From: Eisenbergiella porci
GTDB lineage: Bacteria; Bacillota; Clostridia; Lachnospirales; Lachnospiraceae
Assembly: GCF_009696275.1 (NCBI RefSeq)
Contig: NZ_VUMI01000038.1
Coordinates: 1 to 54,444, forward strand
Direction of reading: 5' to 3'
DNA length: 54,444 nt
How positions within the stretch are numbered: the stretch's first letter is position 1; the number at the start of each line of letters is the position of its first letter. Under the pieces are notes generated by a model. The model was given only the letters and a program-made list of their open reading frames with translations. It was not told the DNA's origin and did no database searches. Made by a program: the position numbers and the translations under genes. Below are positions 2,851-41,863 of the stretch, piece after piece.

Positions 2851-3192
2851 TTAATTTACCTCCATTTGACTCATTTGGTTTAATAATATGTTTGCAAGTG
2901 TCTCGTCCTGGGCGCTCTGGGTTGCCATGATGCTCATTTGGTTCAGTAGGGCGTCGGCGTTCTCCTCCTCTTGCATCTCAAACCGTTCCAGTATAATCAG
3001 CATTTCTGGTGACTCCATGAGTTCCAGGTATTTTTCGTATTCTGCGAGGCTCATCTGGCGCTCCTCGTAGCTCCACGCATCGTTGCCTTCTTTGTCCTTA
3101 ATTTTGGTCGCGTTCCTCCTGAGGTACACGGTTGTTTTCCCGACCTCGACCGCTTTCGGCTCTGTGTAGCCGATCACTGTTTTCCATTTCAT
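2851..3192 (-). CDS. XkdW-like phage tail-region protein
   Basis: This 113-residue protein reads MKWKTVIGYTEP at its start, then short beta-like stretches with TTVYLRRNATKI, and ends in a helical region rich in Glu, Met and Gln. It resembles the XkdW-type proteins found between tail fibre and xkdX. I chose the ATG at 3192 because it has an AAAGGAG site 10 bases upstream; the longer frame to 3216 has none. Its first 95 bases overlap the end of the reverse transcriptase gene in another frame. This suggests that the DGR was inserted between the fibre gene and this one. Confidence 0.65.
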   Translation of the reverse strand: MKWKTVIGYTEPKAVEVGKTTVYLRRNATKIKDKEGNDAWSYEERQMSLAEYEKYLELMESPEMLIILERFEMQEEENADALLNQMSIMATQSAQDETLANILLNQMSQMEVN

Positions 3193-4276
3193 GCTTTTCG
3201 TTCTCCTTTCTCGCATGTTTTGAAACCATGCGCTTGAGTTGCTTTACGTTCACCTTTGGTTTTATTCTTTCGGCATAAACGCCGTACATGTCGGCATGCT
3301 CGAACCATCCCAGGTGGGAAAGCATTTGCTGGCCATCGTAAAAGGTTTTTCGCTCTTTCTTTGCGATTTTGTTCGCCTTTCTCGTAGTTTTCAACATGTG
3401 GCTTTCTCGCAATATGGTCCGGTTGCCATAAAATAGATAGCCGCACACATCGAGAGGTTTGCCGTGTTTCTTGCCGTGCCGATCCTCCCACTCGATCGGA
3501 AAAACCTGGTGGCTGTGGTTGATCTCCATGTTGTATTCGCGGCGCATGTAATCAATGACATCGCGCTCGACTTTGTGCAGCTTCTTTTTGTTTGGCCCGA
3601 ATATCACAAGGTCGTCCATGTGCCTGAGATAATGAGCAACGCCGTCCTGTTCTGTCAGCCAGTGGTCGAACGGCGTGAAAAGGAAGTGAATGTGCCATAC
3701 GCTTGTTGGCGATCCTGGAGCCAGTCCCAGAGGGCTGGCCCGGATCACCTTATCGTTCTCAATATTAAAATCTGCGTCTTTGACTTTCTCATGCCACCGG
3801 CGTATCAGGATGTCTTGATCGACTGACGGATAGCAGTGGTGCACGTCCATTTGTAGGCAATACCTCGTGCCCTTCGGATCGTTTCGGATCCATTTGCTGA
3901 TCACCTGAGCCGACTGCAGAGGTCCGCGCTTTTCCAGCGAGCCGTGTGCGTATTCGTAAAGACTATGCAAAACAATCGGGCGGATCTGCGAGATCAGGAC
4001 GTGCTGGATCATTTGGTCGTATTTGAACCGAGGTTTTGCAATTTCCCTCCGTTTCCGCTTGATGCCTTCCCGGATGGTGTGGAGCTCATACGTCTCGAAG
4101 CCGGTGTCGTGCCTGAGCATCATGTCCCGAACGATCTCCGCCTCTTTGTCGATGTTTTCGACAACTTTCCTGACGCACGCTTTTTTCATTTTCCCGTTTT
4201 TAGCCGCCTCGGTTATGCAATTTTTAATATTTCCCAGCTCTATGGCTGGAGCGTAAAGGTTTTTATATGTTATCAC
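3098..4276 (-). CDS. Reverse transcriptase of a diversity-generating retroelement
   Basis: This 392-residue RT should copy the template repeat RNA at 4461-4572 into adenine-mutated cDNA that replaces the variable repeat of the fibre gene. RT motifs are in order: QMDV (142-145, first catalytic Asp), LGLAPGSPTS (183-192), HMDD (219-222, the other catalytic Asps) and the LDVCGY region after 270. The N-terminal YKNLY...AAKNGK matches the start of DGR RTs. Two motifs are unusual: most DGR RTs have a GNLTSQ-like motif where this has GSPTSV, and Tyr of YxDD is His here. The start is GTG with no clear ribosome site. The last 32 residues are read out of frame through xkdW. Confidence 0.9.
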   Translation of the reverse strand: MITYKNLYAPAIELGNIKNCITEAAKNGKMKKACVRKVVENIDKEAEIVRDMMLRHDTGFETYELHTIREGIKRKRREIAKPRFKYDQMIQHVLISQIRPIVLHSLYEYAHGSLEKRGPLQSAQVISKWIRNDPKGTRYCLQMDVHHCYPSVDQDILIRRWHEKVKDADFNIENDKVIRASPLGLAPGSPTSVWHIHFLFTPFDHWLTEQDGVAHYLRHMDDLVIFGPNKKKLHKVERDVIDYMRREYNMEINHSHQVFPIEWEDRHGKKHGKPLDVCGYLFYGNRTILRESHMLKTTRKANKIAKKERKTFYDGQQMLSHLGWFEHADMYGVYAERIKPKVNVKQLKRMVSKHARKENEKHEMENSDRLHRAESGRGRENNRVPQEERDQN

Positions 4277-4460
4277 GTTATCGTGTAGCTTTTTGCTTAT
4301 CGCCTAAAGAGCTTTCGCGGATTGCTACCGGCCCCTTCCCTTGTCACCGCTTGCGCGGCCGGCTTAATTTTCCCTCGATCCGGTTGTCCGGTAGACGTGT
4401 TGCAACGCCCTGTGGGGTAGGTGTCGATCACGAGCATTTGGTTAATAGCCCCATGAATTG

Positions 4461-4572
4461 ATAAGCATGCGAAGGCCCGATGTTCCAATTCGAGTTCGAA
4501 AACGGATTGTTGACGTTGAAAGCAGCCCCAACATGAAGCCCGTTGTTGCAATTCGCGCCCCAGATCAGGAAA
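4461..4572 (-). repeat. DGR template repeat (TR)
   Basis: This 112-nt sequence aligns without gaps to 4699-4810. The 14 differences all lie where the minus (coding) strand of this copy has A, out of 23 A in the repeat, so this copy is the template and the other the mutated recipient. Nine AAY codons dominate, the usual design that lets Asn codons change widely without making stops. It lies between target and RT genes, the common DGR order. The repeat is open in the target frame. An ATG at 4619 follows an AGGAGGA with almost no spacing, so translation of a 63-residue peptide is doubtful. Confidence 0.95.
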
Positions 4573-4648
4573 CGGCCCAAAGATCGCTCGTGAAAGCCCC
4601 TAAGCGTATCGCTGCACATTCCTCCTATCTGTTTTGTTTTAAGTATTA

Positions 4649-4664
4649 CGGGGGCGATCCCCCG
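4649..4664. repeat. GC-rich hairpin between variable and template repeats
   Basis: CGGGGG (4649-4654) pairs perfectly with CCCCCG (4659-4664) around a 4-base loop CGAT. It lies 35 bases beyond the 3' end of the variable repeat and just after the fibre stop codon. In the Bordetella phage DGR a hairpin or cruciform just downstream of the variable repeat aids homing, and this may be its counterpart. No T run follows on either strand, so a simple terminator is less likely. Confidence 0.5.
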
Positions 4665-4677
4665 GTCCCCCCGACGG

Positions 4678-6288
4678 CTACGCCGCTTTCGGGTATTTAT
4701 AAGCAAGCGAAGGCCCGAGGGCCCAAGCCGAGTGCGAAAACGGAGCGTCGACGTGGAAAGCAGCCCCAACACGAAGCCCGTTGTTGCAATCCGCGCCCCA
4801 GAGCAGGAAATTAAGCTGCGTCGTATTCCACCAACATCCGTCCGGCTGATATGTGGTTTCTGATCCGCTTGCAACGATCGGGAACTCACCGAACTCGGTC
4901 ATTTTTGTTTTGGAAATATATCCGCCGCTTGTGCCAGTGATGGTGATGCCGGTGTCTGTGTAGCCAGATCCGTCCGTGTTGTATGGAGGGTATGCTTTTG
5001 TGAGTATGTGGCCGGCCGTATTATATACAACGCCGTACTTCCTATCCCAGCGATCGCCGTAGTAATTCTCCAGCCATAGGAACTTCACGGACGCGTTCCC
5101 ATTCGTGCCGTAGAACATACCCTTGTTTTTGAGCTGGCCGGTCTGGAGTAGTGAGCTAGCCGCTGAGCCCCCGTCATAATGGCCGCGGCCAAAGGTTGCC
5201 TGGAGATCCGACGATTTCCCCAGCAAGAACAAAAGATGGGTTACCATTTGCGCGTTCATCCAGTCGTCGAACTGCCAGCCGGATCCGTTTGCTTCGATCT
5301 GAGTCTTTTCAGTTGCTCCGGTTTGCGTATTCATCGGCGTCTGGCCGGCGAGAGATCTAACCTTGCCGCTTACGCTGGAGCCCTCGAACATAGGAAGGTA
5401 GATCGCATCCAGTTCCTCGCCGTTATACATGTGAGCGTAGCATTTGAAGTCGGTGTCGATCTGGACGTTTGAAACTCTCACATGTTGGCCGGTTGCATCT
5501 TGCCAGCGTTTGAAGTACATTTTCGGGAACTCGACCATGGCATTTCCGCCGTATGCCGTGTTGCTGATGTCGGACGCTGTTGAACCGTCCAGTTTGAAGC
5601 TCTGGTCGTCGTGGTTGAGCTCATAGTCCACGGTTCCGTCATATTTCAGCATAACCGGACGGATCGAGCGCATAAAAAACGTGTTGGCCCACCGACCGAG
5701 ATCAAACGCGCCGCTCGATTGGTTCACCGTCATCGGATCCCACTCGGCATTGTCTACGTCGGAGGGATATGAGATACGCGTCGCCGGGTTGCTGTCGTCC
5801 TGGTCAATATCAAAGCCATAAAGCTCGTATTGTTTAGGGGTTGCCTCGGCTTTATTTTGTGGGTTTCGATTGTAGACGCCTTGATCTGAATATGGGAACG
5901 CTGCGTAGTAGTAGGTTGTGCCATTGGCGAGCCCGGCGTCCTCGTATGGTACTTCTTTGTACTGCCCGAAGTTCTCGCGCTTAATATCAATAACCAGGCT
6001 GCCATCCTTTTCGGTTTCTGGGTACCCAGTTTCGCTTCGCATGATTTTCACGCCAGCAATAGTGCTGAGTACCTGGCTGTCGATGATCGTGTCTCCAGGT
6101 TCCTCGATGTATAACTTCGCGGACCCATCCCCGGCGAAGGCGGAGAACTTGATCATATTAGACGGAGCGATGCCGCCAGATCCGCCTTGTGCAATTTCTT
6201 GAACGGATGCGCTGATATTGTCGACCTTAGCCTTTACGGCGTCGAGTGTCGGTTTGTCTGCAATATAGATTTTGTTTTCCGGTGTCAT
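4678..6288 (-). CDS. DGR-diversified receptor-binding tail fibre protein
   Basis: This 536-residue virion protein probably contacts the host surface. The N-terminus (1-45) is helical and presumably joins the fibre base. Residues about 45-150 are beta-rich, with a fibronectin-III-like look (LANGTTYYYAAFPYSDQG). The C-terminal region ends in LLWGADCNNGL...GPSLAY, the CNNG-type C-type-lectin fold known from DGR targets. Residues about 493-530 are the variable repeat, in which 11 residues differ from the template-encoded ones, mostly Asn to Asp, His or Ala. The start overlaps the preceding gene by 4 bases and has an AGGAGG site. Confidence 0.9.
   Translation of the reverse strand: MTPENKIYIADKPTLDAVKAKVDNISASVQEIAQGGSGGIAPSNMIKFSAFAGDGSAKLYIEEPGDTIIDSQVLSTIAGVKIMRSETGYPETEKDGSLVIDIKRENFGQYKEVPYEDAGLANGTTYYYAAFPYSDQGVYNRNPQNKAEATPKQYELYGFDIDQDDSNPATRISYPSDVDNAEWDPMTVNQSSGAFDLGRWANTFFMRSIRPVMLKYDGTVDYELNHDDQSFKLDGSTASDISNTAYGGNAMVEFPKMYFKRWQDATGQHVRVSNVQIDTDFKCYAHMYNGEELDAIYLPMFEGSSVSGKVRSLAGQTPMNTQTGATEKTQIEANGSGWQFDDWMNAQMVTHLLFLLGKSSDLQATFGRGHYDGGSAASSLLQTGQLKNKGMFYGTNGNASVKFLWLENYYGDRWDRKYGVVYNTAGHILTKAYPPYNTDGSGYTDTGITITGTSGGYISKTKMTEFGEFPIVASGSETTYQPDGCWWNTTQLNFLLWGADCNNGLRVGAAFHVDAPFSHSAWALGPSLAYKYPKAA
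4699..4810 (-). repeat. DGR variable repeat (VR) in the fibre gene
   Basis: This is the recipient copy of the 112-nt repeat, encoding fibre residues about 493-530. Relative to the template the coding-strand changes are A to G, C or T only, at 14 sites, altering 11 codons (for example ATC to CTC, AAT to GAT or GCT, AAC to CAC, GAC or GCC, CAT to CGT or CTT). The CysAsnAsn codons are unchanged. The GC-rich 3' part (GGGCCTTCGC) is nearly identical in both copies and is the likely initiation-of-homing site. Beyond it identity stops. Confidence 0.95.
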
Positions 6289-6863
6289 GCCTCATTTACC
6301 TCCTGAATATAGATTAGCCCATTATTTACTCCCAGCCGGTACACGATTTGGGTTGTATCGTCTGTAATTTTGTTCGCATCTTCCGCGAGCATTAGGGCGC
6401 CAGTTCCAGCCACGATTGTTACATCGGCGCTGTTTGACACTGTTGCATAATACTCCTGGGTGATTGTTGAAGGCGTGAGCCCATTGTACGGTGGCAAGTA
6501 GTCGGCCACGATTGCGATTGCGATGGAATAGAGGATCGGATCGCTGTCCTCGTCCAGTTCGTTTTTCGCATAGATCCCGACCTCTCGAACATAGTACCCG
6601 GTGGTGAGGTCGATGTTCGTGATTACTCCAGTGAGGAGCACGCTGGTTTCTGTCGCCATCTCTTTTTTAGAAAATCCAAAGGTCTGTTTTTGGTTCTTGA
6701 GGCTCGTGCGTTGTTGGAGGCTTTCTCGTCTCTTTTCCTCCTCGGTGTACTCGCCATTTCCAGTAACCATGGCCGTGAATTGCATCTTTGCAACCCCGGC
6801 CTGACATTGTGCGAGAAGTGCGGCGCCTTCGTTGGTCATAACTGCGCTGTTAAAGTCTGCCAT
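6285..6863 (-). CDS. Phage tail-collar fibre protein (fibre N-terminal module)
   Basis: This 192-residue protein begins MADFNSAVMTNEGAALLAQ, typical of P2-like tail-fibre N-terminal (tail-collar) domains that attach to the baseplate, and contains the GYYVREVGIYAK beta strand conserved in that family. It is much shorter than a whole P2 fibre. The receptor-binding part is the separate downstream gene, so the two probably assemble into one fibre. An AAAGGAGG site precedes the ATG. Confidence 0.75.
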   Translation of the reverse strand: MADFNSAVMTNEGAALLAQCQAGVAKMQFTAMVTGNGEYTEEEKRRESLQQRTSLKNQKQTFGFSKKEMATETSVLLTGVITNIDLTTGYYVREVGIYAKNELDEDSDPILYSIAIAIVADYLPPYNGLTPSTITQEYYATVSNSADVTIVAGTGALMLAEDANKITDDTTQIVYRLGVNNGLIYIQEVNEA

Positions 6864-14045: not shown

Positions 14046-15530
14046 TTACGCCTCCTCTCCAAAGAACGAGGAGAAGCCCTCGTCTGTATATGTTACCTTT
14101 GCTGTTGCCGACTTCATCGGTGGCGTAGGCGTTGCCATAATGTGGAACATAAAGTCGCCGTTGACCATATTGCTGGTAGGGTTTTCGCTCTCCAGGAAAA
14201 TGATCTCCGGATCTCCGATAAGTGCACCGACGCCCTTGAGCGCGTCGAGCTCGCCTTGCTCACTGATCACGATGCTGTCGCGATCGTTTGGAGTCATAGG
14301 GGCGTCAATCTGCGTTCCGTTTCGCTTCTGGAAACCGTTGGTACAGTGCATGAGCATACGGATATTGTTATCGAAGATAGCAGCCGCATCCATCGAGCCG
14401 TTGTACTGGTACGCGGCCGTATGAGGTCCCCACAACTTGAAAGTTCCCTCCCAGTAGATCAGGGTAGTGATACCTTTTTCGTTGAGGTCGTTGGCCTCCA
14501 TCTGGTCGAAGCCCTGATTTTTCGACTTGTCTCCAAAATATTGAGCTGTTGCCATGATGTCCTCGTTCGACGGGCTCTCGCATGGTACCGCATCATGTTC
14601 CATGTCTGTCGCCATCATTGTCGCCGTTGTGACTGTGCTGAGGTGGTAAACCTTGCCGGCGTTCTTGCTCATTGGCCAGCACACTTTCGAGATCTCTGAT
14701 GTGTACCCGTTCTTTTCTTTCCAGTCAATCGCCTTCGCGATGGTGTCGATGTCCGTGCCGCTTTCCTCGAGAGGGATGTCGGCGTTTACAAAAGCGTCCC
14801 AGTGTCCGTTGATCTTCTGGGCTGCTGAGCATAATGCTCGATATACTTCCGGAATTTGTGACCATCCAGGCGCGGCCATGATGTTGGTGATCGCGTTATG
14901 TCTCAAATACATGAGAGCCACGGCAGCGATGCCGGAGTATTCTCCGCTCTGTGATTTCTGTCCGATGATGTCAGAAGTCTCAACCATTGAAGGATCGACC
15001 TCGTAGAATGTAACGGATATTTCCCCATCGAGAGGATTGGAGTCATTCAGGGACGAGATCGTCACCTTTCCGCTTGTGAAGTTGTAGTCCACGGCGTAGT
15101 CCACGCCCTCGACCTTTTCTGCAATCGCAAGAGTGTCGAGGATCACTGTGTCGCTCAGGAAGGACGCGCGGCCGTTGGAGAACGCGAGCGTCTCTTTTGT
15201 GGCCACTGCCTTTCTGTGAACGTCAGGATCCAGCACGTTGATCATGTAGATCGGGCCTACGTTCTGGACTGTGTTGTTGAAGTGATAGTCCATGACTTCG
15301 CATAATGTGAAGCCGTTTCCTGGCTCCCAGTTGTCGGAATATCCGACCTTTTGCTGGGCCTCGCCGATGTTTCTCAATCGAACGGGAACATTTACCAGGT
15401 CGGCGTCGTCGTAGCCTCTGATCAGGTTAATCGGAGCCGTTCCGAAGTAGACGGCAATTTCATCCACCTGGGCTGTGCTCTTGACCTGGGAAGCTGTGCG
15501 CTCGCCATAGGTTCCGTGCAAATATGCCAT
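14046..15530 (-). CDS. Phage tail sheath protein
   Basis: This 494-residue protein is the contractile sheath. It begins MAYLHGTYGERTASQVKST and has the family's internal GEYSGIAAVALMYLRHNAITNIMAAPGWSQIP region, KINGHWDAFVNADIP, and a C-terminal half with TLIYWEGTFKLWGPHTAAYQY and IFLESENPTSNMVNG. These show a P2/Mu-like contractile tail, so the phage is a myovirus morphotype. It ends 4 bases before the tube gene. Confidence 0.92.
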   Translation of the reverse strand: MAYLHGTYGERTASQVKSTAQVDEIAVYFGTAPINLIRGYDDADLVNVPVRLRNIGEAQQKVGYSDNWEPGNGFTLCEVMDYHFNNTVQNVGPIYMINVLDPDVHRKAVATKETLAFSNGRASFLSDTVILDTLAIAEKVEGVDYAVDYNFTSGKVTISSLNDSNPLDGEISVTFYEVDPSMVETSDIIGQKSQSGEYSGIAAVALMYLRHNAITNIMAAPGWSQIPEVYRALCSAAQKINGHWDAFVNADIPLEESGTDIDTIAKAIDWKEKNGYTSEISKVCWPMSKNAGKVYHLSTVTTATMMATDMEHDAVPCESPSNEDIMATAQYFGDKSKNQGFDQMEANDLNEKGITTLIYWEGTFKLWGPHTAAYQYNGSMDAAAIFDNNIRMLMHCTNGFQKRNGTQIDAPMTPNDRDSIVISEQGELDALKGVGALIGDPEIIFLESENPTSNMVNGDFMFHIMATPTPPMKSATAKVTYTDEGFSSFFGEEA

Positions 15531-21492: not shown

Positions 21493-23397
21493 TTACCATT
21501 CGCCGTCGTATATGTCACGGCGCTTGTTGTGTCTTTTTGGTGGTTCCGGTTTTGCTTTGGGTTCTTCCAGGCCTTTGAGCCTTCGCTCAATCGCATCCAG
21601 ATCCGGATCGACGATACGGTACCCGGCCAGTGCATAATTGCGAAGGTCGAGTGGCTCGTTTCTTTCGTGACCTGGCAGCTTTTTCCACGTCACTTTGTCG
21701 CGGCCGTTTGATCTTGTGAGTACCGGTGTCTCGGATAATAGGCCGTTAAAGTAGCCCGCGTCGTAGCCTCGGTCGTCATTATTTGGAAAGTGGCAATACT
21801 TGGTACCGCCAGGTTCCTGGACTTCCAGGGCGTTGTATATCATCGTTTTTCCGGCGTCAACTCCGATAGTGTAGAGCCAGCAGCGCACGCGCTTGTTGTC
21901 CCGGATTGGCACCTTGCTCGGCGGGTTAATGTATGGAATACCCTCGCCGCCTTTTCCTTTGATTGCGAACACATGCTTCGCGAGACGGGCGCGGCATTGT
22001 TCGTACACCTCCTGGGTGAAGTGACCGCCAGAGTCGACGCATGTGATCGAGATCTTGAGGCCTTTGCCGCTTGCGTATGTGTACGTGTGATCAATCAGGT
22101 CGTCGAGACGGTCCCACGGTTCTTGGGTGTCTGGCCGACCCATAATGTACCCGCGCTTGATCCCCCAGGTCTCGCCACCGTGTCCGTGGCCTACGACCTC
22201 GTACTCGAGACGGTTGTCCTGAGTGTCTACGCCGCAAGTTAAGACCAGAACTCCGTCCGGAAGCTCTGCGTCGTAGTGTTCGCGCCGGCCTAGCATTTCG
22301 TCGTCGTCCACGACTGCAGTGCGGTCCTCCCACAATTCCCCGAGGAGAGTGTTGCAGACTACCTTGAGCCGTTCCGGATCCCCTTGAGCATCCAGGAATT
22401 TGACGACGATCTTGCTCCATGGAGTCCACGGAGAAGCGAAGGCCGATAGCCAGAACGATCTCACGCCGTTCTCGTATGCCTCCGGATTGGTTGCGATCCA
22501 CTTGGCCGGCTGCTTTCGCATTTCGGCCTCTGTGCTAATACACCCGCACTCAGGGCACACATAATTGATGGCGCCGACGACCTTATTGGCCATGCGCCCG
22601 TTTGGTGCTTTTATTTTTTTATGTTGGAAGCGGATCCGCCCGAAGGTGATCTCGCTGTATTCCCCACAATGAGGGCAGCGGTGGCACCATCGCTCCTGGG
22701 TTCCCTGGTAGTAGCTCGTCTCGATGTTGCTGCGTCCTTTAATTGTTGGAGTTGATACCTCCACGGCCTTCGCGTTGTAGAAGGTCGCCTGGCGCGCTTC
22801 GGCAAGAGCCCAGGGATCGCCTTCGCTGCCGGCCGATATAGCCCAGCGATCTCGCTCGTCTCCGAGGATGTACCTGGCCGGGGTGGATGCCAGGGCGCTG
22901 GCGCTGTTCGATCCGGTGATGGTGAGCATGCCGCCAGGGAAGGACTTCTGGAGCACAGTGCTCGTTGTGTCTTTTCCTCTGATCTCTGTCACCTTCTGGC
23001 GTAGTACCTTTGAGTCTCTGACCATCGGTGAGATCCTCAAGCGGGAGAACTTTCGAGCATCTTCGAGAGAAGGCTGCGCGAATAGGATGGAGCCAGGATC
23101 CTGGTCCATAATGTACCCGATTATATTGAGCTCCAGCTCAGACTTGCCGACCTGGGAAGCTGCGACCATGACGATCTTCCTGACTTTCGGATCCGTGAAC
23201 GCTTTCATCGGTTCGGCCAGGTATGGTGTCCTCTTGGTTCTCCATGGTCCGGCCTCTGCCGAGTTCTCAGGGGAGAGGCGCCGGTATTTGTCAGCCCACT
23301 CGTCGACGGTTAGGTTCTCCGGCGGTTTGAAGTGTGCCACCTCTGGAGCGATCGCGGCGTTGAGAGCTGCCGCGGCCTTTTTAGTCGTCTTGCTCAT
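21493..23397 (-). CDS. Terminase large subunit (GpA family)
   Basis: This 634-residue packaging motor has an ATPase domain with Walker A at MVAASQVGKSE, Walker B near RYILGDERDRW, and a zinc-binding pair of Cys motifs (CHRCPHCG, later CPECGC) typical of GpA proteins. The C-terminal nuclease region holds LTCGVDTQDNRLEYEVVGHG and ITCVDSGGHFTQEVYE, with metal-binding Asp residues. GpA enzymes cut at cos sites, so cohesive-end packaging is expected. Its start overlaps the small-subunit gene by 17 bases. Confidence 0.93.
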   Translation of the reverse strand: MSKTTKKAAAALNAAIAPEVAHFKPPENLTVDEWADKYRRLSPENSAEAGPWRTKRTPYLAEPMKAFTDPKVRKIVMVAASQVGKSELELNIIGYIMDQDPGSILFAQPSLEDARKFSRLRISPMVRDSKVLRQKVTEIRGKDTTSTVLQKSFPGGMLTITGSNSASALASTPARYILGDERDRWAISAGSEGDPWALAEARQATFYNAKAVEVSTPTIKGRSNIETSYYQGTQERWCHRCPHCGEYSEITFGRIRFQHKKIKAPNGRMANKVVGAINYVCPECGCISTEAEMRKQPAKWIATNPEAYENGVRSFWLSAFASPWTPWSKIVVKFLDAQGDPERLKVVCNTLLGELWEDRTAVVDDDEMLGRREHYDAELPDGVLVLTCGVDTQDNRLEYEVVGHGHGGETWGIKRGYIMGRPDTQEPWDRLDDLIDHTYTYASGKGLKISITCVDSGGHFTQEVYEQCRARLAKHVFAIKGKGGEGIPYINPPSKVPIRDNKRVRCWLYTIGVDAGKTMIYNALEVQEPGGTKYCHFPNNDDRGYDAGYFNGLLSETPVLTRSNGRDKVTWKKLPGHERNEPLDLRNYALAGYRIVDPDLDAIERRLKGLEEPKAKPEPPKRHNKRRDIYDGEW

Positions 23398-25652: not shown

Positions 25653-27329
25653 TTACTCTATGCCGTCGAGTAGGGCGTCCCACTCAGATCTTGGCACTTC
25701 TTTTCCTTTTCTGATTAGTCGCACGCCTCCGATATCCCCGGTGTTTTTGGCGTACCTTCTGACGATCACGTCGCACCATTTCGGCTCGAGCTCGAGCGTG
25801 GCACAGTTTCTCCCGGTGTTCTCGCAGGCTATGAGGGTTGATCCGGATCCACCGAAGAAGTCGACCACGAGCTCTCCCGGGCGGCTGCTGCTTAGGATGG
25901 CCCGCTCGCACAGCACGATCGGCTTCGGTGTTGCGTGGCCGCCGGCGTCATCTCTCTCGCTCATGTTCGTGATTGGGAAACGCCACACATCGGTCATGAT
26001 CTCGTGCTCCTCACTGTCGTTGTGGGTGTTGTCGAAGAAGGCCCGTAGCTCCATCGCCTCGGCCTTCATGTTCTGGTACTCCGCGGACGGCTTATTACGC
26101 AGCTTCATAACTTGTTCATGAGAGAGGCTGAAGGCACGCCCTTTGAAGGCTTGCTGGAGCTTCTTGTAGTGCCGCTCTGGGATCGGGGTGAATTGCGATT
26201 TGCTAAACCAGTGCCCCCACATTTGGACTCCCGTGATCTCGGTGAGTTGCTTTGCTTTGAGCCCGACCTTCTGAGCCTCGCCGATCATGTAGTCGAGCAT
26301 GGCTTGGTATGCGTCGTTGAAATGATCTTTGTTGTTGTTGAAGCCTTCGACGCCGCACATAACAAAGAGGCATTTCTCGGTTTCTCTTGGGTAGCTCCGC
26401 ATGAGATCGCTATTCACGCCGAATGCCGAGTGCTTCGCCCATGTGATGTAGTTTCTGAATGTGATCTTGTTTGCTGCGATCATTGGCCGGAGAATGAAGG
26501 CGTAGATATCCATGAGGGGTTCGTCGATACCCCAACAGTACCAGCTCCCGTTTTCCTTCAGAATATCGAAGCTGAGCGCGATCCATTGTTTATTGAACTC
26601 GAGCAGATCGTTCTGGTTTTGGTTGTCGTTCTGGACGCCGTCGCTTTCTTTCCCCATGCCGTATGGCGGGTCGGTGAATACGAGATCAGCGCGTTGACCA
26701 CCCGTCGCTTTCTGGACGTCGGCCATCTTAAGGCTGTCTCCGCAGTAGAGGCGGTGATCGCCGAGAAGCCAAAGGTCGCCGGCCTCAGTGAACGGATCTT
26801 CTGGCGGTTCGTCCGTTTCCGTTTCGTCCCCCTGTTCGCCCGGGTTATCATCGTGCAGCGCCTCGCTCAGTGATGTGACCAGCTTCTCAACTTCCTCGTC
26901 GGTGTACCCGGTCTGGTCCAGATCAATCTCTCCGGTGTCGATTTCTGCGAACACGTCGGCGAGCATCTTCTGGTCGATCTCTGAGAGCTCCGCGATCCTA
27001 TTGTCCGCGATCAGGTCGGCATACTCCTCGGCCTCGCTTGCGTAGTCCTGGTAGTCGACCGGCGCTTGCTCCATGTTCCCGAGCTGGGCGGCCATGAGTC
27101 GGCCGTGGCCTTTTACTATGTACCCGGAGCGGGTGCTCACTGTGATCGGCTGCCTCCAGCCTCCGTTCTTGATGATCTTGGCCAGGAGCTTGATCTGGTC
27201 GTCTGGGTGCTTGTTGGGGTTCGCCGGGTTCGGTATTAGCTTTATGATGTCAACGATCTCGTCGTGCGCACAATATACCGGTATCCCTCCGGCCATTCCT
27301 TTCGGTTTTACTTCCTTGTCTTTGCTCAT
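25653..27329 (-). CDS. ParB-domain DNA methyltransferase
   Basis: This 558-residue fusion starts with a ParB/sulfiredoxin-type domain (about 20-120: IIKLIPNPANPNKHPDDQ, VKGHGRLMAAQLG). The methyltransferase part follows, with TDPPYG (219-224, motif IV) before a C-terminal FFGGSGSTLIACE (SAM-binding motif I), the order of beta-class N6-adenine or N4-cytosine enzymes. It probably marks phage DNA against host restriction. ATG 27329 was chosen for its AAAGGAGG site. It overlaps the upstream gene by 4 bases. Confidence 0.88.
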   Translation of the reverse strand: MSKDKEVKPKGMAGGIPVYCAHDEIVDIIKLIPNPANPNKHPDDQIKLLAKIIKNGGWRQPITVSTRSGYIVKGHGRLMAAQLGNMEQAPVDYQDYASEAEEYADLIADNRIAELSEIDQKMLADVFAEIDTGEIDLDQTGYTDEEVEKLVTSLSEALHDDNPGEQGDETETDEPPEDPFTEAGDLWLLGDHRLYCGDSLKMADVQKATGGQRADLVFTDPPYGMGKESDGVQNDNQNQNDLLEFNKQWIALSFDILKENGSWYCWGIDEPLMDIYAFILRPMIAANKITFRNYITWAKHSAFGVNSDLMRSYPRETEKCLFVMCGVEGFNNNKDHFNDAYQAMLDYMIGEAQKVGLKAKQLTEITGVQMWGHWFSKSQFTPIPERHYKKLQQAFKGRAFSLSHEQVMKLRNKPSAEYQNMKAEAMELRAFFDNTHNDSEEHEIMTDVWRFPITNMSERDDAGGHATPKPIVLCERAILSSSRPGELVVDFFGGSGSTLIACENTGRNCATLELEPKWCDVIVRRYAKNTGDIGGVRLIRKGKEVPRSEWDALLDGIE

Positions 27330-27655
27330 TGTCTGTGTGTCCTCCTTTGGTTTCTTTCTTCTTTGTAGCGATCGCGTGCAATCGCATCCCACTCGATCCG
27401 CTGGCCGCACCAGTGGCACCAGGAGTCCGGCACTCGGATCCATCTGCCGCATGTAGGGCAGCAGTACCCGAAGTCGTCCTTTTTAATTGCCAGGGCCGTC
27501 GTCTCATACCTGGCCGTCATTCTTGCGGCACTCTGGCACGCTGCATCGTAGTCGCTTATGATGTCGCATGCCTCGGCGACTGCTGCCGCCTGATCACCTT
27601 CGAGCCCCTCGATGGCTTCCAGGACCTTGATGATCTTGCTATACTCAGCCGTCAA
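27326..27655 (-). CDS. Small zinc-ribbon phage protein, TTG start
   Basis: This protein has a helical N-terminus (TAEYSKIIKVLEAIEGLEGDQAAAVAEA) and a C-terminal two-Cys-pair zinc ribbon (CCPTCGRWIRVPDSWCHWCGQRI). The coding-like part begins at a TTG (27655) that overlaps the stop of the previous gene (TTGA), which suggests translational coupling; upstream residues in the frame look non-coding. About 109 residues. Function unknown; it could bind nucleic acid. Confidence 0.65.
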   Translation of the reverse strand: MTAEYSKIIKVLEAIEGLEGDQAAAVAEACDIISDYDAACQSAARMTARYETTALAIKKDDFGYCCPTCGRWIRVPDSWCHWCGQRIEWDAIARDRYKEERNQRRTHRQ

Positions 27656-40217: not shown

Positions 40218-40254
40218 TTTGTGCTCATATTACGAGAGGAGGCGATAGCATGGA
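40218..40254 (+). repeat. 37-bp leader repeat, copy 2 (before recombinase)
   Basis: Matches 39426-39462 at 33 of 37 positions and supplies the recombinase ribosome site (AGAGGAGG) and ATG. Such flanking copies suggest the channel gene was inserted by duplication of the original repressor-recombinase junction. Confidence 0.9.
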
Positions 40255-41863
40255 TCAAGTTGGTGTGATCTATGCGCGTTTCTCCAGCCACGCCCAGCGC
40301 GAGGAGTCGATTGAGGACCAGCTCAGAGAGTGCCACGCCTTCGCGGAGCGCAACGGGATCCGGATCGTTGAGGAATACTGCGACCAGGCCCTCACCGGAA
40401 AAACGGACGCAAGGCCGGCGTTCCAGCGTATGGTTAGAGACTCGGCAAAGGGCCGTTTCAGCATCGTGATCACCTATAAGGTGGACCGCTTCGCCAGGAA
40501 CCGGTACGACTCGGCCACATACAAGGCCAGGCTCAAGAAAAACGGTGTCCGGGTGCTCTATGCAAAAGAGACGATACCAGACGGGCCGGAAGGGATCATT
40601 CTGGAGAGCGTTCTGGAAGGATATGCCGAGTATTATTCCGCGAACCTTGCGCAAAATATCACGAGAGGGCTGGAGGGAAATGCTTTGAATTGTAGGACCA
40701 ACGGCGTCGTGGTTTTAGGATATAAAAAGAGTGACGACGACCATTATGAGATAGACGAGACGACCGCGCCGATCGTGCGCGAGATCTTCGAGAAGTATGC
40801 GTCCGGAGTCAAACAGATGGAGATCTGCGAGGAACTCAATGCCAGAGGCCTTAGGACGACACGGGGCGGGCCGTTTAATAAAAATAGCCTCGTGCGCATC
40901 CTGAAAAACCGGAAATATATCGGCGAATACCATTACATGGACGTCACGGTACCCGGAGGCATGCCGGCCATAATATCCGTCGAGCTGTTCGAGGATGTAC
41001 AACAAAAGCTCAAGAGAGGTAGACGCGCCCCGTCGAAGGACTGGAGCTGCGCGGACTTCCTTCTCACCGGCAAGCTGTTCTGTGGAGAATGTGGCGAGCC
41101 TATGGTTGGCACTTCTGGCCATGGCCGGAGCGGCCGCAAGTATAATTATTATATATGCGGGGCGAAAAAGCGCCGCCAGGGATGCAAAAAAGAAAACGTG
41201 GCCCAGGATTGGATCGAGGAGGTTGTTCTGGCGTACACGATGGAAGTCGTGCTCCAGGACGACACGATCCAGGAGATCGCTGACGGTGTGATGGACTTCC
41301 TGGCCAGAGAGGCAGCAGACGACGGCGTTCTGGTCAGCCTGGAAGCCCGTCTGGCCGAGGTCAAAACGTCGGTCAAAAACTTAATGAAGGCGATCGAGGC
41401 CGGGATTATTACGAAGGCCACGACCGAGCGCATGATGGAGCTGGAGAACGAGCGTGTTGAGCTCGAGGATGCGATTGCGATCGAGAAAATAAAAGAGCCA
41501 GAGATCGAGAGGGATCAGGTGGTTTTCTTCCTGGAGAAGTTCCGGGACGGAGATCTGAACGATCCAGCTTTTCGGTTGAGGCTTGTCGAGGCCTTTGTCT
41601 CGTCCGTGTACCTATGGGACGACGGCCGCATCGACATCAATTACAATTATACCGGCCAGGGCTCGAAGGTTTCGCTGGACCAGGCCGCCGACATCGTCTC
41701 AAAAATAGCCGGAGGAGACGGTTCGGACTTAGACTCGTCTGGTCCATTAAAAACACTGATAAAATGGGGCTTTTTTGGACACGATTTTAAAAAGGTAATA
41801 CCTGGAATTGTTCAAGGCTTTCCTGCAAATTCAATTTATTATTATTTTGGGGCTATGGAGTAG
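40250..41863 (+). CDS. Large serine recombinase (integrase)
   Basis: This 537-residue recombinase carries the catalytic resolvase domain (Ser12 in YARFSS, later DRFARN and YAEYYSANLAQNITRGLEGNAL), a recombinase domain (residues about 155-265) and a zinc ribbon (CGECGEPMVG...CGAKKRRQGC). A long coiled coil follows (about 355-430) and then the C-terminus. It integrates and excises the phage between attP and attB. The last 35 codons (from about 41750) are much AT-richer than the rest, hinting that the attachment site or a recombined end lies in the gene's 3' part. Confidence 0.92.
   Translation: MDQVGVIYARFSSHAQREESIEDQLRECHAFAERNGIRIVEEYCDQALTGKTDARPAFQRMVRDSAKGRFSIVITYKVDRFARNRYDSATYKARLKKNGVRVLYAKETIPDGPEGIILESVLEGYAEYYSANLAQNITRGLEGNALNCRTNGVVVLGYKKSDDDHYEIDETTAPIVREIFEKYASGVKQMEICEELNARGLRTTRGGPFNKNSLVRILKNRKYIGEYHYMDVTVPGGMPAIISVELFEDVQQKLKRGRRAPSKDWSCADFLLTGKLFCGECGEPMVGTSGHGRSGRKYNYYICGAKKRRQGCKKENVAQDWIEEVVLAYTMEVVLQDDTIQEIADGVMDFLAREAADDGVLVSLEARLAEVKTSVKNLMKAIEAGIITKATTERMMELENERVELEDAIAIEKIKEPEIERDQVVFFLEKFRDGDLNDPAFRLRLVEAFVSSVYLWDDGRIDINYNYTGQGSKVSLDQAADIVSKIAGGDGSDLDSSGPLKTLIKWGFFGHDFKKVIPGIVQGFPANSIYYYFGAME

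What the first reader, a model, noticed from the sequence alone, without database searches (positions are those of the whole stretch)
3098..4810. A diversity-generating retroelement with strictly adenine-specific divergence
A gapless 112-nt repeat pair (TR 4461-4572, VR 4699-4810) has 14 mismatches, all at template adenines on the coding strand, none at the other bases. Eleven codons of the fibre protein's C-terminal lectin-like domain are changed. The RT and fibre genes are both open, so the phage appears to be actively re-targeting its receptor-binding tip. This asymmetry is the hallmark of mutagenic homing.
Basis: partly seen in the sequence, partly recalled or inferred. Interest (0 to 1): 0.85.

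Follow-up and report, generated by a model that had tools for sequence, protein, structure and literature searches.

The report
Phage DGR with altered RT motifs
A virus carried in a bacterial genome has a known kind of gene-rewriting machine that varies its tail fibre only at template adenines, but the enzyme for it has unusual letters at positions thought to matter for this trick.

Summary
TR 4461-4572 and VR 4699-4810 pair without gaps; all 14 mismatches lie at the 23 TR adenines (p 3.4e-12); 11 fibre codons change. It is a diversity-generating retroelement (DGR) in a prophage with contractile-tail genes: RT of the DGR clade and fold, tail-fibre target, spacer RNA resembling Rfam RT-4, hairpin after VR. 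That part is ordinary. YxDD is HMDD, and (I/V/L)GxxxSQ is PGSPTSV. Three IMG/VR contigs (63-68% RT identity) share HMDD and SV; none of 159 other distinct clade RTs compared does. This lineage still diversifies at adenines: identical TRs, three different VRs, 40 of 42 mismatches at A; two contigs differ at 15 of 111 VR sites but 9 of 5610 others. Six other RTs with a changed Y or Q also have A-biased VRs. So neither the YxDD tyrosine nor the SQ glutamine seems needed for adenine-specific mutagenesis. No bAvd match was found in this genome. Recent activity is inferred from the relatives, not shown for this prophage.

The parts
3098..4276 (-). DGR reverse transcriptase, 392 aa, GTG start; motif 3 QMDVHHCYPSVD, motif 4 GLAPGSPTSVWHIH, motif 5 RHMDD
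   Evidence: Pfam RVT_1 3.3e-10; phrog_1423 1.6e-62; AlphaFold model pLDDT 88.6, best PDB match 8ub7, a DGR RT, E 1.7e-17; motifs
4277..4460 (-). TR-RT spacer, likely structured RNA (candidate RT-recruiting and priming region; role inferred)
   Evidence: RT-4 (RF03025) match at 4295-4419, 38.9 bits, E 3.8e-5, below the gathering score of 73.5; weak RT-18 match, 20 bits, E 0.87, at 4293-4358. L001, L002, L003: RT-4 45.7 bits each, also below gathering. Conserved with L001-L003
4461..4572 (-). Template repeat (TR), 112 nt, 23 A, none in a third codon position of the fibre frame
4649..4664 (-). Hairpin-like inverted repeat CGGGGG-ATCG-CCCCCG after VR and the fibre stop, in the place of the BPP-1 stem-loop
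   Evidence: sequence; conserved and longer in L001-L003; folded beside L001 and BPP-1, where the window's G/C runs gave a shifted pairing
4699..4810 (-). Variable repeat (VR), 3' end of the fibre gene; 14 of 14 mismatches at TR adenines
4678..6288 (-). DGR target: tail fibre, 536 aa, VR at its C terminus
   Evidence: phrog_5302 tail protein 2.5e-76; no Pfam or NCBIfam match; best PDB fold match TaqVP 5vf4, E 4.7e-6, TM 0.28/0.37; fibronectin type III domains among the next matches
6285..6863 (-). Tail-collar fibre protein next to the target gene
   Evidence: PF12571 9.9e-6; phrog_7037 tail fiber protein 2.3e-39
2851..3216 (-). Small phage ORF (phrog_20201, unknown function) overlapping the RT 3' end by 119 nt; a likelier start, with AGGAG upstream, is the ATG at 3192

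Best explanation
This is a prophage DGR. The 23 adenines of TR are copied with errors by the RT, which is recruited by the RNA between TR and its own gene; the mutated cDNA replaces VR at the 3' end of the tail-fibre gene, up to a boundary next to a hairpin. So the fibre tip can vary at up to 14 codons without gaining a stop. The RT belongs to a derived DGR lineage that changed several near-invariant active-site residues (YMDD to HMDD, SQ to SV, P to A, Y to P, N to H, F to C) and kept adenine-specific mutagenesis. Shown here: anatomy, A-specificity, clade and fold membership, lineage-specific substitutions, VR hotspot between near-identical relatives. Inferred: the homing steps, recruitment by the spacer RNA, activity of this copy, role in receptor binding.
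For: A-specific repeat pair. RT nested on the DGR side of a quick tree: split from 12 RTs taken as non-DGR 98%, inner nodes 95% and 97%, lineage 100% SH-aLRT, stem branch 1.11. Best fold match is a DGR RT. L001, L002 and L003 (63-68% RT identity, HMDD and SV) have identical TRs and three different VRs: 14 of 15, 12 of 13 and 14 of 14 mismatches at A. L001 and L003 differ at 15 of 111 VR sites and 9 of 5610 others (Fisher p 9e-21). Window and L001 RTs: 198 of 369 nucleotide differences are at codon position 3, and 125 of 232 identical residues have changed codon, which fits purifying selection. 0 of 159 other distinct RTs carry C148, A186, P190, V193, H197 or H219. Same order as BPP-1, whose annotated repeats give 18 of 22 mismatches at A. 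Spacer RNA and hairpin.
Against: No reads were examined, so activity of this copy is untested; its VR shows only past homing. bAvd, whose loss lowered BPP-1 DGR activity (PMC12875486, passages), was not found in the genome. The lectin fold of the VR domain rests on a low-confidence part of the model. The lineage is 4 sequences, 3 of them closely related contigs. The tree is a quick one, with a long-branch warning for other rows.
Confidence: 0.88

Rival explanations
1. The variant RT is inactive or nearly so; VR here and in the relatives was written in trans by another, canonical DGR RT in the same cell (for example the RT on contig C121).
For: The genome has a second DGR RT with YLDD and SQ and its own TR/VR, 15 of 17 mismatches at A.
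Against: That RT is 38% identical, has another TR, and its spacer matches RT-18, while the window's matches RT-4 better. The variant RT looks to be under purifying selection, and its unusual residues are shared by window and L001 at 63% identity. VR varies among L001-L003, whose RTs are near-identical and open, L003 being cut by its contig end.
Confidence: 0.07
2. A DGR relic: once active, VR now fixed, RT decaying (first step: loss of YxDD and SQ).
For: PMC3521204 (passages) suggests that some elements with many non-A changes may no longer work; PMC4244168 (passages) reads SQ changes as probable inactivation or sequencing errors.
Against: No non-A mismatch in the 112 nt pair; open RT that looks to be under purifying selection; the same motifs in relatives with a VR hotspot. 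PMC3521204 itself finds A exchanges in DGRs with altered SQ.
Confidence: 0.05
3. An ordinary DGR; the motif changes have no bearing on how adenines are chosen or on the enzyme's behaviour.
For: A-specificity like that of other clade members (54 of 57 against 1874 of 2120 mismatches; p 0.20) and no significant difference in spectrum (p 0.16). Other RTs with a changed Y or Q also have A-biased pairs.
Against: Nine conserved columns carry residues seen in none of 159 other RTs and shared by window and L001, on one long stem branch, which does not look like loose drift.
Confidence: 0.35

Closest known systems
BPP-1 DGR (Bordetella phage BPP-1: mtd, avd, TR, brt)
   Same: Gene order VR-TR-RT on one strand, A-specific VR in a tail protein, hairpin just after VR; RT fold, 8ub7 being a DGR RT whose sequence agrees with brt over the aligned part
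   Different: 126 nt between TR and VR, with no avd there, and no bAvd match in the genome; HMDD for YMDD, V for Q187, P for I181; the spacer lacks the TAGTA motif and looks unrelated by eye; the target is a larger fibre
Compact DGRs of this RT clade (loci L005-L009, L034-L057, L064-L221)
   Same: RT clade, VR-TR-RT order in loci with a detected pair, fibre relatives in 136 loci, RT-18 spacer RNA in 6 of 9 loci scanned
   Different: Near-invariant Y and Q in their RTs: Y 156 of 159, Q 157 of 159
Phages Butyrivibrio Arawn, Lactobacillus LBR48, Faecalibacterium FP_Epona
   Same: RT similarity only: 39.5%, 32.8%, 29.4% identity over 91-94% of the query
   Different: All 91 matched phage records are under 60% identity; their motifs and repeats were not examined
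Thermus aquaticus variable protein TaqVP (5vf4)
   Same: Best PDB fold match of the fibre model
   Different: TM 0.28/0.37 and a low-confidence VR domain; the fibre has further domains

Membership tests
DGR | TR/VR pair with substitutions confined to TR adenines | tested here: met
   14 of 14
DGR | VR at the 3' end of an open target gene, no stop reachable by A-to-N | tested here: met
DGR | RT of the DGR clade next to TR | tested here: met
   tree, fold
DGR | (I/V/L)GxxxSQ in RT motif 4 (characteristic; last two residues vary in 15 of 155 elements in PMC3521204, so not treated as defining) | tested here: not met
   PGSPTSV in the window, LGAPTSV in L001-L003
DGR | YxDD (Y, or F in 14%, in PMC3521204) in RT motif 5; the two D are the catalytic residues | tested here: not met
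   HMDD: Y absent, both D present
DGR | Boundary (IMH-like) and hairpin 3' of VR | tested here: met
   Similarity ends 3' of 4461/4699; hairpin 4649-4664
DGR | Avd accessory protein (present in BPP-1; not treated as defining) | tested here: not met
   PF22296: 0 of 19 genomes or records, G000 among them; 14 built-in control genomes also 0. Positive control: 5 of 6 other genomes with RT hits. No other accessory family was tried
DGR | C-type lectin fold of the variable domain (common, not universal; recalled) | tested here: inconclusive
   TaqVP best match but weak
DGR | Homing seen in reads or experiment | not testable with these tools
   no reads held; comparison of contigs only
Rfam RT-4 RNA (RF03025) | Score at or above the gathering cut-off of 73.5 bits | tested here: not met
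   38.9 bits, E 3.8e-5: a likely distant relative, not filed as a member

The most novel reading that the evidence does not exclude
A lineage of phage DGR RTs rebuilt its active site (no YxDD tyrosine, no SQ glutamine, and in this prophage no hydrophobic I/L at the bRT I181 position) and still mutates only at template adenines. The determinants of adenine specificity must then lie in what is left in common (for example the R74-equivalent R77, G188, W194) or in the RNA, not in the SQ motif proposed for it.
Probability: 0.5. Interest if true: 0.62.

Novelty: new variant of a known kind. Interest (0 to 1): 0.45.

Why it matters
Why DGR RTs err only at template adenines is not settled, and the SQ motif has been proposed as the cause (PMC3521204, passages read). 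That survey of 155 elements reports Y or F in YxDD and, besides SQ, the dipeptides SP, SH, NQ, PA, AQ, VQ; neither H nor SV is in the passages I read. One library search for a DGR term with HMDD shows 0 occurrences of HMDD in the 12 papers listed of 29; the other 17 were not shown. The library lacks most subscription papers, so this is not proof of absence in print. A natural lineage without both residues and with A-specific VRs, plus six further variants, is a ready comparison set for testing the idea.

Tried and rejected
More of the HMDD/SV lineage: viral-contig scans with the window RT, a lineage alignment and the L001 RT gave only the same three contigs (one search also gave 24 others without the motifs). 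A genome-contig scan with the lineage alignment gave no relative. Samples of 200, 398 and 392 whole genomes of family, phylum and order (overlapping) gave none beyond G000: motifs of loci L006-L033 were read (L015 and L031 without the motif) and of the 7 new loci; some searches were cut at E 1e-60, so weaker hits there were not seen. The lineage is rare or poorly sampled.

The mutation spectrum of the lineage (17 C, 21 G, 16 T) does not differ significantly from the others (407 C, 943 G, 524 T; p 0.16). dN/dS failed with a math error and was replaced by codon-position counts. Model coordinates were not among the files in my Python box, so contacts between V193 and H219 were not measured. A hairpin with TAGTA..CGAAA upstream of the RT looked new (strict pattern 44 of 165 loci, 0 of 165 shuffled) but 6 of 9 loci scanned match Rfam RT-18, so I dropped it as a novelty. 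I built no covariance model. Chance origin of the repeat pair is rejected by the p value.

Sampling caveats. One of the two patterns in each A3 scan contains the motif-4 Q, so Q counts there are inflated; among 76 RTs whose discovery did not need motif 4, Q is 74 and Y 74; of 190 loci with an RT, 26 with identical cores, 2 with motif gaps and 3 lineage loci were left out, giving 159; a second check leaves 158; 158 of 191 loci gave a repeat pair of at least 70 nt; 133 others with at least 5 mismatches were counted, 13 of them with under 70% of mismatches at A. The six variant pairs were picked by a filter asking for at least half of the mismatches at one base. The 12 non-DGR rows of the tree were chosen by me from their motifs.
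Full report
OBSERVATION. On the minus strand TR (4461-4572) and VR (4699-4810) align over 112 nt without gaps. All 14 mismatches fall on the 23 TR adenines and none on the 89 other bases (p 3.4e-12); 11 codons of the fibre change. TR has no A at third codon positions of the fibre frame, no A-to-N change can make a stop, and 14 codons can vary. In the 6.1 Mb genome a TR search finds TR, this VR and two short chance-level hits.

SETTING. The window is contig C82 of a 149-contig genome. Minus-strand phage genes run from terminase (21493-23397) through portal, protease, major head protein, tail sheath (14046-15530), tape measure and baseplate to the fibres and the DGR, so the phage has a contractile tail. 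A large serine recombinase lies at 40250-41863 on the plus strand, followed by genes of bacterial type and the start of a 16S rRNA at the right end. This fits a prophage whose left end meets the contig end (inference).

WHAT IT IS. The RT matches RVT_1 and phrog_1423; its model (pLDDT 88.6) is closest to a DGR RT, 8ub7. In a quick tree of 87 rows it lies inside the side that holds the DGR RTs (the tool warns of long branches for other rows). The fibre matches phrog_5302, and its model's best PDB match is TaqVP, a DGR variable protein, but with low TM (0.28/0.37) and low confidence in the VR domain. Order and hairpin agree with BPP-1. The spacer between TR and RT resembles Rfam RT-4 below its gathering score.

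THE UNUSUAL PART. Against 159 other distinct RTs of the clade, window and L001 share residues seen in none of the others: C148 (F or Y in 158, one gap), A186 (P in 155), P190 (Y in 154), V193 (Q in 157), H197 (N in 158), F200 (L in 159), D211 (L in 151), H219 (Y in 156), M250 (L in 156). P187 is the window's alone (L in L001-L003; L 98, I 60, K 1 in the others). By the alignment and the numbering checked, V193 corresponds to bRT Q187, P187 to I181, R77 to R74, and H219 to the Y of YMDD. That I181 and R74 of bRT affect adenine mutagenesis is recalled (Handa and colleagues 2021; not held). HIV RT P157 is part of the template grip and Q151 of the dNTP pocket (PMC2850067, passages); PMC3521204 equates P157 with the DGR Q (passages).

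DOES IT STILL WORK? L001, L002 and L003 carry the same unusual motifs (L003 cut by its contig end), have identical TRs, and VRs with 14 of 15, 12 of 13 and 14 of 14 mismatches at A. L001 and L003 differ at 15 of 111 VR sites but 9 of 5610 others; L001 and L002 at 18 of 111 and 82 of 5231; L002 and L003 at 13 of 111 and 76 of 4423. Of 20 VR sites that vary among the three, 18 are TR adenines and 2 are T. The lineage of four has 54 of 57 mismatches at A (one of the three misses is the window's boundary base), the others 1874 of 2120. Other RTs with a changed Y or Q also have A-biased pairs: L054 (NVDD) 19 of 21, L056 (FCDD) 20 of 21, L103 (WMDD) 19 of 19, L162 (SH) 15 of 15, L204 (SK) 11 of 11, L232 (NMDD with SP) 18 of 20 (motifs). 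These pairs passed a filter of at least half of the mismatches at one base, so the set is not blind to bias. L232 is a second case where Y and Q changed together.

ACCESSORY PROTEIN. bAvd (PF22296) gave 0 of 19 genomes or records, the window's genome among them, and 5 of 6 other genomes with RT hits as positive control. 15 of the 19 are virus records, several short, so absence is firm only for the 4 genomes. The 126 nt between TR and VR leave no room for an avd gene there.

VERDICT. The finding is right and of a known kind. The added value is a derived RT lineage that keeps adenine specificity without YxDD and SQ. Its activity is inferred from relatives.

Noticed in passing
L005 (G000 contig C121: RT 3902-5017): The same genome carries a second DGR with a canonical RT (YLDD, SQ), a TR/VR pair with 15 of 17 mismatches at A, a homologous fibre (phmmer E 2.2e-92) and an RT-18 spacer RNA.
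   Followed up: partly
L232: A same-family genome has a DGR RT with NMDD and SP, again both motifs changed together, with 18 of 20 mismatches at TR adenines.
   Followed up: partly
L005, L006, L045, L048, L069, L175: Rfam RT-18 RNA lies between TR and the RT gene in these 6 of 9 loci scanned, suggesting that RT-18 (and RT-4) RNAs are parts of DGR template transcripts.
   Followed up: partly
L133, L166, L160, L107, L131, L210, L219, L171, L170, L215, L211, L187, L192: 13 of 133 clade repeat pairs have under 70% of mismatches at A; some may be wrong pairs or decayed DGRs.
   Followed up: no
window 25653-27452: 599 aa protein with ParB-like and DNA methyltransferase matches in the prophage.
   Followed up: no
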